A stretch of DNA of 64,000 bases, from the NCBI GenBank assembly GCA_946186205.1, contig CAMHMH010000002.1, forward strand, positions 62,001-126,000, given 5' to 3'. The stretch comes from an uncultured Fretibacterium sp. (GTDB lineage: Bacteria; Synergistota; Synergistia; Synergistales; Aminobacteriaceae). Of the stretch, positions 57,417-59,034 are shown one piece after another. Under the pieces are notes generated by a model. It was not told the DNA's origin. It searched no databases and saw nothing but the letters and a program-made list of their open reading frames with translations. The position numbers and the translations under genes were made by a program. How positions within the stretch are numbered: the first letter of the stretch is position 1; each line of letters opens with the position of its first letter.

Positions 57417-57449
57417 GACTCCCTGTGAAAACGCAGGGGGTCTTTTTTT
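57417..57449 (+). terminator. Terminator of the M13 peptidase
   Basis: The stem GACTCCCTG/CAGGGGGTC with loop TGAAAACG is followed by seven T's. Confidence 0.85.
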
Positions 57450-57485
57450 GTGCGCATAAATAAAGACTGCTCCCCTTGAGGAACA

Positions 57486-57641
57486 GCCTTAATCCCTTAT
57501 AGGAAGGTTCGTAATGGAAGAGCTCGTCAGTGAAATCGGCATTGTAAGGTTTCAATCCCTTATAGGAAGGTTTCACAACTTTTTGAGGGAAAATACCACG
57601 AAACGCAATTAGTTTCAATCTCTCGCAGGAAGATTCATTTT
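57486..57641. CRISPR. Degenerate three-repeat CRISPR-like relic
   Basis: Three ~30-bp units start at 57486, 57549 and 57612, exactly 63 bp apart. The middle unit is GTTTCAATCCCTTATAGG-AAGGTTTCACAA; unit 1 shares 19 identical core bases with it, and unit 3 shares the GTTTCAATC start and AGGAAG core. GTTTCAATCCCTTATAGG is a common start of type I/III repeats. The two ~33-bp intervals are unrelated to each other. No cas gene is in the window, and repeat ends are degenerate, so this looks like the decaying edge of an array. The stretch 57398-57726 holds this relic, a terminator and the left end of the tnpB element. Confidence 0.6.
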
Positions 57642-57726
57642 GACGCGAAAATTTTATCGAAACTCGCCGTAAAACCCTTAGCTTTAGCTATGGGGATATA
57701 AGGAGTAATATAATATAATTTCAAAT

Positions 57727-58799
57727 ATGAAAACGTTTTGCTTCAAACTCTATCATTCCGACTATAATAATGCCTTAATGAGCCTAATTAATATAGCTGG
57801 CCTCATCTACAATCATTGCATAGCCTTGCATAAACGCTATTACAGATTGTACAAAAAATCTCTCAATGCCAACCGTCTGAAAAATCATCTTGCGAAATTG
57901 AAGCACACAAAAAATTTTCTTACATGAGCAAGCTAGGTTCGCAGGCAGTTCAGGACATCGCCGAGCGAATAGACCGTGCATATAATCTATTTTGGAGCAA
58001 CCTGAAGCGCAAGAAGAAATGTTCACCGCCAAAATTCCGTAAGGTACGCAGATATAAATCATTCACGCTGAAACAAGCGGGCTGGAAGCTGGACGAATTT
58101 AACGGCAAAATCCGCATAGGCAAAAAGTGGTACGGGTACTTCAAGTCGCGAAAGACAGAGGGGAAAATAAAAACAGTAACAATAAAGCGTAATGCAGTCG
58201 GTGATATATACGTCTATCTAGTGTGTGATACTTAGTGCGATACAGTCAAGCCGCGAACGGGTAAAAGCGTCGGGTTAGACTTCGGACTGAAACAATTTCT
58301 CACAGCGAGTGATGGACATAACATTAAGTCTCCGTATTTCTTCATGCTGAACATAAAGAATATCCGTAAGAAGTGCCGCAATTTATCCCGAAAAAAGGAA
58401 GGCTCGCGCAACCGTAACCGGGCAAGAAAAGAATTAGCACGCGCATATAGGAAAACGAATAACCAGCGCAAAGATTTCCACTTCAAGACAGCAAGAAGGC
58501 TATGTGAAGAATATGCAGTGATATGCCTTGAGACGCTGAACATGAAAGGAATGGCGCGCAGATGGGGGCGAAAAGTTCACAGCTTAGGCTTCTATAGTTT
58601 TGTAGAAATCTTGAAATATGAAGCAATGAAGCTGGGAACGCAGATAATCTTTGTGGACAGGTATTTTCCGTCAAGCCAGCTTTGCAGTGTATGCGGTTAC
58701 AAAAATCCGGCAGTGAAGGACTTGAAGATACGAGAATGGGAATGCCCCAACTGCCACACTAGACATGACAGGGATAAGAATGCGGCAAAAAACATTTGA
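57727..58799 (+). pseudogene. tnpB: TnpB RNA-guided nuclease, frameshift plus in-frame stop
   Basis: Three consecutive pieces rebuild one ~355-residue TnpB. The first (MKTFCFKLYHS..., to 57927) breaks at a frameshift by LAKLKHTKNF. The second and third lie in one frame separated only by TAG at 58233-58235 in a duplicated TGTGATACT/TGCGATAC stretch. The RuvC residues remain: Asp in VGLDFGLK, Glu in CLETLNM, and Asp in RHDRDKNAA, with the zinc ribbon CSVCGYKN...CPNCHT. Two lesions make it inactive as read. TnpB proteins cut DNA guided by an RNA from the element's right end. Confidence 0.88.
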
Positions 58800-58960
58800 T
58801 GGCTGGGACATACTTGCTTGCGCTTACGCAGCCAGCCAGTGGAGGAGAACCCGTGCCTTACGGCATGCAAGCACAAGACGCTCTTCGGAGTGCAAGGTTT
58901 GAAGATACCAGAATCACCCGCCTTTACTTACGTGCGCTGCGCTACAGGCGTGGGGAGTAT
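58800..58960 (+). ncRNA. Probable omega RNA region of the tnpB element
   Basis: The stretch after the tnpB stop is non-coding and rich in hairpins (GCAGCCAGCC, GTGCC-TTAC-GGCAT, CTC-TTCG-GAG, and the right-end hairpin). In TnpB elements the guide RNA is made from this place, and the guide would be read from the flank after about 58960. The call rests on position and structure only. Confidence 0.5.
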
Positions 58961-59034
58961 GTCAAAAGAAATACAAGGACGAATTAATACTGATTCCCGC
59001 TCACACAGGAACGCACAGCGATTTGTTCTGAGAA

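What the first reader, a model, noticed from the sequence alone, without database searches (positions are those of the whole stretch)
57486..57641. Orphan CRISPR-like relic with exact 63-bp period
Seen: three units at 57486, 57549 and 57612; two share a 19-base core, and the third shares the GTTTCAATC start. The intervals are unrelated. No cas gene is in 64 kb. A tnpB element begins about 33 bp after the last unit, at the point where a fourth repeat would start (57675), suggesting insertion into the array or its replacement.
Basis: partly seen in the sequence, partly recalled or inferred. Interest (0 to 1): 0.55.

Follow-up and report, generated by a model that had tools for sequence, protein, structure and literature searches.

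The report
Small CRISPR array, promoter split
A rumen bacterium carries a real two-spacer piece of CRISPR immune memory far from its Cas genes, and a jumping element has cut through its start signal, so it is a fading part of a known defence system rather than something new.

Summary
The units are real: three repeats at 63-bp steps with two unrelated 33-nt spacers. It is a genuine small CRISPR array, read on the minus strand. It is not an orphan at genome level: four more small arrays with the same repeat lie elsewhere, and a type III-B locus (cas6, CARF, cmr1, cas10, cmr3-6) lies on another contig. Cas1 is absent and the adjacent RT looks decayed, so new spacers probably cannot be added. The array keeps an intrinsic terminator and a first repeat trimmed mainly on the side the crRNA does not use. 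The tnpB element did not enter the array. It sits in the promoter, between the -35 and -10 boxes; the -35 half lies on contig C5 beside another copy of the element. Beyond 58965 there is no more array but the end of a yafQ toxin gene. The same repeat occurs in 12 of 37 genus genomes searched, in small dispersed arrays, some at shared sites. No protospacer was found. Known kind; modest interest for its 'leaderless crRNA gene' layout.

The parts
57455..57490 (-). intrinsic terminator of the array (12-bp stem at 57463-57490, then a T-rich run); overlaps the end of the last repeat
   Evidence: fold -19.8 kcal/mol, z -2.43; similar hairpins end most congener arrays
57486..57515 (-). last repeat (crRNA sense ATTACGAACCTTCCTATAAGGGATTAAGGC); 5' part intact, handle altered
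57516..57548 (-). spacer 2 (33 nt)
   Evidence: no match elsewhere
57549..57578 (-). middle repeat, handle ATTGAAAC intact; Rfam CRISPR-DR2-like
57579..57611 (-). spacer 1 (33 nt, promoter-proximal)
   Evidence: no match elsewhere
57612..57641 (-). first (promoter-proximal) repeat, degenerate in its 5' and middle parts, handle ATTGAAAC intact
57651..57656 (-). -10 box TAAAAT; its -35 box TTGCGG and the TG of the extended -10 now lie on contig C5 beyond another IS copy
57658..58965 (+). IS200/IS605-type tnpB element inserted after TTTTAT in the array promoter; tnpB interrupted by an in-frame TAG at 58233-58235
   Evidence: ends defined by aligning other copies; PF07282 and PF01385; ORFs
58966..59031 (+). 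C-terminal fragment of a yafQ-type toxin gene, showing that the right flank comes from another locus

Best explanation
A genuine, small, probably silenced CRISPR array of a type III-B (Cmr) system that acts in trans. Intended mechanism (inferred): RNA polymerase starts at a promoter next to the first repeat, transcribes two repeat-spacer units on the minus strand and stops at the terminator built onto the last repeat. Cas6 from the C1 locus cuts 8 nt upstream of each spacer (handle ATTGAAAC), and the crRNAs load into the Cmr1-6/Cas10 complex. Shown from sequence: repeat identity with the cas-linked array, terminator hairpin, intact handles, absence of Cas1, absence of the long leader, and the split promoter. 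Inferred: the array can no longer gain spacers, and it is weakly or not transcribed since an IS200/IS605-type element entered between -35 and -10, followed by recombination between IS copies that moved the -35 half to C5.
For: Same 19-mer in five small arrays of the genome, one inside the cas operon. Complete cmr1-6/cas10/cas6/CARF set. Ninety-three spacers read from 27 loci of this and congener genomes, with no pair alike beyond weak local similarity. First repeats of leaderless arrays (22) differ from consensus at 0.38 per nt in the 5' part but 0.05 in the handle; last repeats (30) do the reverse, 0.06 and 0.47, as expected if only the parts needed for crRNA are kept. Promoter motif TTG[CT]NN-N14-TGNTA[ATG][AG]AT: 21 hits in 99,783 bases of array loci, all directly upstream of arrays, 0 on the other strand, 0.06 in shuffles; joining the window's array side to the C5 flank recreates this motif. 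Congeners G010 and G004 show M13 peptidase followed by the cytidylate-kinase-like gene, and G010 shows yafQ beside IMPDH, the arrangement expected before the exchange.
Against: No protospacer was found for any spacer tested. The Rfam match is below its curated threshold. No transcript data. The IS-IS exchange could be an assembly error in a 19-contig genome; the promoter insertion itself would still stand, because halves of the array promoter border IS copies on both contigs. yafQ beside IMPDH was seen in only 1 of 29 congener IMPDH loci. As they stand only 2 of the 5 own arrays show the strict promoter motif (C1:302 kb and C9; the window array only after joining). Arrays are not independent (several per genome), so its p-values are optimistic.
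Confidence: 0.82

Rival explanations
1. The array is still active: the IS end or read-through supplies a promoter, so both crRNAs are made and used by the C1 Cmr complex.
For: -10 box, both handles, terminator and Cas6/Cmr genes are intact.
Against: Both the -35 and the TG of the extended -10 are gone from the promoter; no good replacement -35 was seen by eye in the IS end.
Confidence: 0.13
2. A host-gene regulator or CreTA-like guard RNA (degenerate first repeat plus guide) rather than immune memory.
For: Degenerate first repeat, few spacers, a toxin-gene fragment nearby; CreTA is recalled, not read here.
Against: No own-genome match for the 13 own spacers except themselves; the yafQ fragment was brought in by rearrangement; spacers differ at every array, including orthologous sites. 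Short partial complementarity was not tested.
Confidence: 0.04
3. An ordinary interspersed repeat family that looks like CRISPR by chance.
For: The unit occurs at several genomic loci.
Against: It occurs in register with 23-38-nt unrelated spacers, lies in the cas operon, and is followed by terminators and preceded by a specific promoter.
Confidence: 0.01

Closest known systems
Type III-B (Cmr) CRISPR-Cas with an RT-Cas1-Cas2 adaptation module
   Same: Full cmr/cas10/cas6 set with an adjacent RT; congeners hold RT and Cas1 (and a Cas2-like gene) in a row. Silas et al. 2017 (PMC5513706, passages seen) describe RT fused or adjacent to cas1, and RT-linked III-B spacers that could hardly be traced to any source, as here.
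   Different: This genome has lost cas1 and cas2, its RT has CADD for YADD, and its CARF effector lacks the C-terminal part that G004 has (279 against 374 aa).
Leaderless, acquisition-inactive CRISPR loci (e.g. locus F of S. solfataricus)
   Same: No leader and fixed content; PMC4390879 (passages seen) describes such a locus.
   Different: Locus F has 88 spacers; here there are 1-6 spacers, with a promoter against the first repeat and a terminator on the last.
Dispersed short arrays far from cas
   Same: PMC12814883 (passages seen) says arrays may be dispersed through the genome and cites leaderless arrays as shorter.
   Different: Here several sites are shared between species with spacers fully replaced, and two congener loci hold leader plus one repeat plus terminator with no spacer.

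Membership tests
CRISPR array | near-identical direct repeats of about 30 nt separated by unique spacers of similar length | tested here: met
   three repeats, two unrelated 33-nt spacers
CRISPR array | match to a curated CRISPR repeat model at its threshold | tested here: inconclusive
   RF01315 at 31.1 bits against a gathering score of 37, E 0.0037
CRISPR array | cas genes in the genome using the same repeat | tested here: met
   same repeat in the cas operon at C1:302537-302929
CRISPR array | leader next to the first repeat (present in active arrays; leaderless arrays are known) | tested here: not met
   no leader similarity upstream of the window array (0 bits); its promoter is split by an IS
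CRISPR array | capacity for spacer acquisition (Cas1-Cas2; not required of inactive arrays) | tested here: not met
   no Cas1 in the genome; the control search rang in 9 of 14 genomes
CRISPR array | spacers match mobile elements | tested here: inconclusive
   no match in phages, plasmids, 43 genus genomes or eight exact scans of viral contigs
Type III-B CRISPR-Cas system (C1 locus) | cas10/cmr2, cmr1, cmr3, cmr4, cmr5, cmr6 | tested here: met
   PADLOC and Pfam hits
IS200/IS605-type tnpB element | OrfB/TnpB with TNB domain; insertion after a short target sequence | tested here: met
   PF01385 and PF07282; copies begin next to TTAT or TTAC
CreTA guard RNA | toxin RNA gene next to a degenerate repeat-spacer unit with partial complementarity to its promoter (recalled) | not tested
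   only longer spacer matches were searched

The most novel reading that the evidence does not exclude
In this rumen Synergistaceae genus the CRISPR memory is split into many free-standing 'crRNA genes' (own promoter against a trimmed first repeat, one to a few guides, own terminator). They duplicate in tandem and settle at new sites as compact cassettes: G031 and G003 each have three tandem units, and own arrays occupy the M13-kinase gap and the tRNA-Asn 3' end, both without an array in the congeners checked (2 and 6). The spread would not need cas genes nearby and would let guides persist after cas1 is lost. A 5-bp repeat (TGTGC) on both sides of the cassette at the M13-kinase site would fit a true insertion.
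Probability: 0.2. Interest if true: 0.6.

Novelty: new member of a known kind. Interest (0 to 1): 0.33.

Why it matters
It shows, within one genus, stages of CRISPR decay: leader arrays that look active, empty leader-repeat-terminator cassettes, leaderless arrays trimmed to what crRNA production needs, and one array cut from its promoter by a transposable element. The two-sided trimming of terminal repeats gives a simple sequence test for arrays kept for interference but not for acquisition. [quoted passage not shown]

Tried and rejected
Rejected: chance repeat; fourth repeat or array beyond the tnpB element; ordinary interspersed repeat. Protospacer searches gave nothing: 13 own spacers against phages, plasmids and 43 genus genomes; 43 of the other 80 spacers against phages and the same genomes (37 were left out, including those of G024 and the ten read by hand); eight exact 20-22-mers against viral contigs, five from own spacers and three from congeners. 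The one partial repeat seen was 22 nt shared by two arrays of G010. A fuzzy-regex repeat finder missed most units and was replaced by a substitution scan. In one search, six clusters with under 150 bases upstream (G031_C1, G001_C94, the first G003_C84 cluster, G004_C26, G004_C79, G033_C142) were dropped from the leader comparison. G003_C202 (17.7 bits) and G013_C152 (0 bits, though its promoter region resembles the leader type by eye) were counted as leaderless; the latter works against the trend. The own tRNA-Asn array shows no clear -10 box and the own C1:50 kb array fits the promoter motif only loosely. Literature: listings (open PMC papers only) showed no paper on dispersed arrays in Synergistaceae; of papers I saw those listings and passages of four. 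CreTA and the general role of the ATTGAAAC handle are recalled.

Full report
Observation. Three units at 57486, 57549 and 57612 step by exactly 63 bp; two share a 19-mer, and the third keeps GTTTCAATC. The 19-mer with up to three mismatches is expected 0.02 times in the window and occurs twice. Read on the minus strand the 30-nt repeat is ATTACGAACCTTCCTATAAGGGATTGAAAC, whose last eight bases are an ATTGAAAC-type handle (its role is recalled). Rfam's CRISPR-DR2 matches the middle unit below its curated score. No cas-like sequence was found in the window.

The rest of the genome. The genome (2,754,062 bases, 19 contigs, 99.68% complete) holds four more small arrays with this repeat: C1:302537-302929 (six spacers), near C1:613422-613503 (two), C9:64332-64483 (two) and C1:50294-50376 (one). 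The first lies inside a type III-B locus: cas6, a CARF protein, the array, cmr1, cas10, cmr3, cmr4, cmr5, cmr6 and a reverse transcriptase, C1:295052-304526. Cas1 is absent from the genome (the control search found it in 9 of 14 genomes), and G004 Cas1 and Cas2 have no hit in C1:286-320 kb. Congeners G004, G010 and G032 have RT followed by Cas1, with a Cas2-like gene (named by eye) in G004 and G032. The own RT is 61% identical to that of G004 but reads CADD for YADD and GGSLWP for GGPLSP. The CARF protein ends before the C-terminal part present in G004 (279 against 374 aa), which would be the RelE-like part of this CARF-RelE family (family name). Adaptation is therefore probably dead and signalling blunted, while the Cmr genes are open. 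These last points are inferences from sequence.

Congeners. The 19-mer with up to two mismatches occurs in 13 of 61 genomes searched: 12 of 37 in the genus (own included) and 1 of 24 others. Cas1 was found in 9 of 43 genus genomes, 8 above the cut-off, and Cas10 in 9 of 43. Named matches are goat and red deer Synergistaceae or Synergistales metagenome genomes (16 stretches). Two layouts exist. Some arrays have a leader of roughly 280 bases conserved between species. Others have the -10 box about 10-18 bases before the first repeat's stem and no leader. The C9 site is shared with G010, and the C1:50 kb site with G010, G003 and G004, by flanking identity; all spacers differ. G011_C29 and G023_C70 hold leader, one repeat and terminator with no spacer. 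G031_C39 and G003_C84 hold three tandem units, each with promoter, guide(s) and terminator.

What is kept and what is lost. Against the consensus, first repeats of leaderless arrays (22) differ at 0.38 per nt in the 5' part, 0.19 in the middle and 0.05 in the handle; last repeats (30) at 0.06, 0.08 and 0.47; internal repeats (53) at 0.12, 0.09 and 0.05; first repeats of leader arrays (9) at 0.03, 0.03 and 0.07. The difference between leader and leaderless first repeats in the 5' part has p = 0.0007 (Mann-Whitney), with the caveat that arrays within a genome are related. Terminal-repeat change at the 3' end is known (PMC8047081, passages). The mirror-image change at the first repeat fits arrays kept for crRNA production but no longer copied by acquisition.

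The tnpB element. Aligned with other copies, it runs from about 57658 to 58965 and follows TTTTAT. Its right flank is the last 21 codons of a yafQ-type toxin gene plus stop. In G010 and G004 the M13 peptidase gene is followed by a cytidylate-kinase-like gene without an array, and in G010 a yafQ gene lies beside IMPDH; yafQ was found at 1 of 29 congener IMPDH loci. On own contig C5 a second copy lies between the front part of a yafQ gene and the start of the same kinase gene. Joining the C5 flank to the window's array side gives TTGCGG-N14-TGATAAAAT, which fits the promoter motif found 21 times in 99,783 bases of array loci, always directly upstream of an array, never on the other strand, and 0.06 times in shuffles. 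So the element entered the array's promoter, and an exchange between two copies moved the upstream half away. A misassembly at the IS copies could mimic the exchange but not the insertion.

Function. Most likely (0.82) this is immune memory of the C1 type III-B system, now frozen and probably silent. The spacers could not be traced: 13 own spacers gave nothing in phages, plasmids or 43 genus genomes beyond the arrays themselves and weak short matches, and exact pieces of five own and three congener spacers gave nothing in viral contigs. Forty-three of 80 congener spacers likewise gave only their own arrays, apart from a 22-nt piece shared by two G010 arrays. Hardly traceable RT-linked III-B spacers have been reported before (PMC5513706, passages), and rumen phages are probably thin in these collections (inference).

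Verdict. The finding is a real CRISPR array, a new member of a known kind. The unusual part is the genus-wide layout of small, self-contained, often leaderless crRNA cassettes at dispersed sites; how they spread is open.

Noticed in passing
G000:C1:302959-303798 (locus L021): The CARF protein of the own type III-B locus stops where G004 continues for about 95 residues, so the signalling effector seems to have lost its RelE-like part.
   Followed up: partly
G000:C1:295052-296077 (locus L021): CRISPR-linked reverse transcriptase with CADD in place of YADD and no cas1 or cas2 beside it.
   Followed up: partly
L017, about 1308-1560 (G000:C1:613 kb): One array sits directly behind a tRNA-Asn gene, where congeners have a terminator; tRNA read-through may drive it. 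Sites in G065, G010, G003, G004, G029 and G011 are empty.
   Followed up: partly
window 57449-57453 and L166 right flank: TGTGC stands on both sides of the array cassette when the M13 and kinase flanks are compared with G010, perhaps a 5-bp target-site duplication or microhomology.
   Followed up: partly
window 58233-58235 and L166: The tnpB copies in the window and on C5 share the same in-frame TAG, so this interruption probably predates their separation.
   Followed up: no
G010:C3 (L073) and G010:C14 (L179): Two arrays of G010 carry nearly the same spacer, differing by a short piece.
   Followed up: no
L053 (G031:C39) and L058 (G003:C84): Tandem promoter-repeat-spacer-repeat-terminator units with very similar frames but unrelated spacers.
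   Followed up: partly
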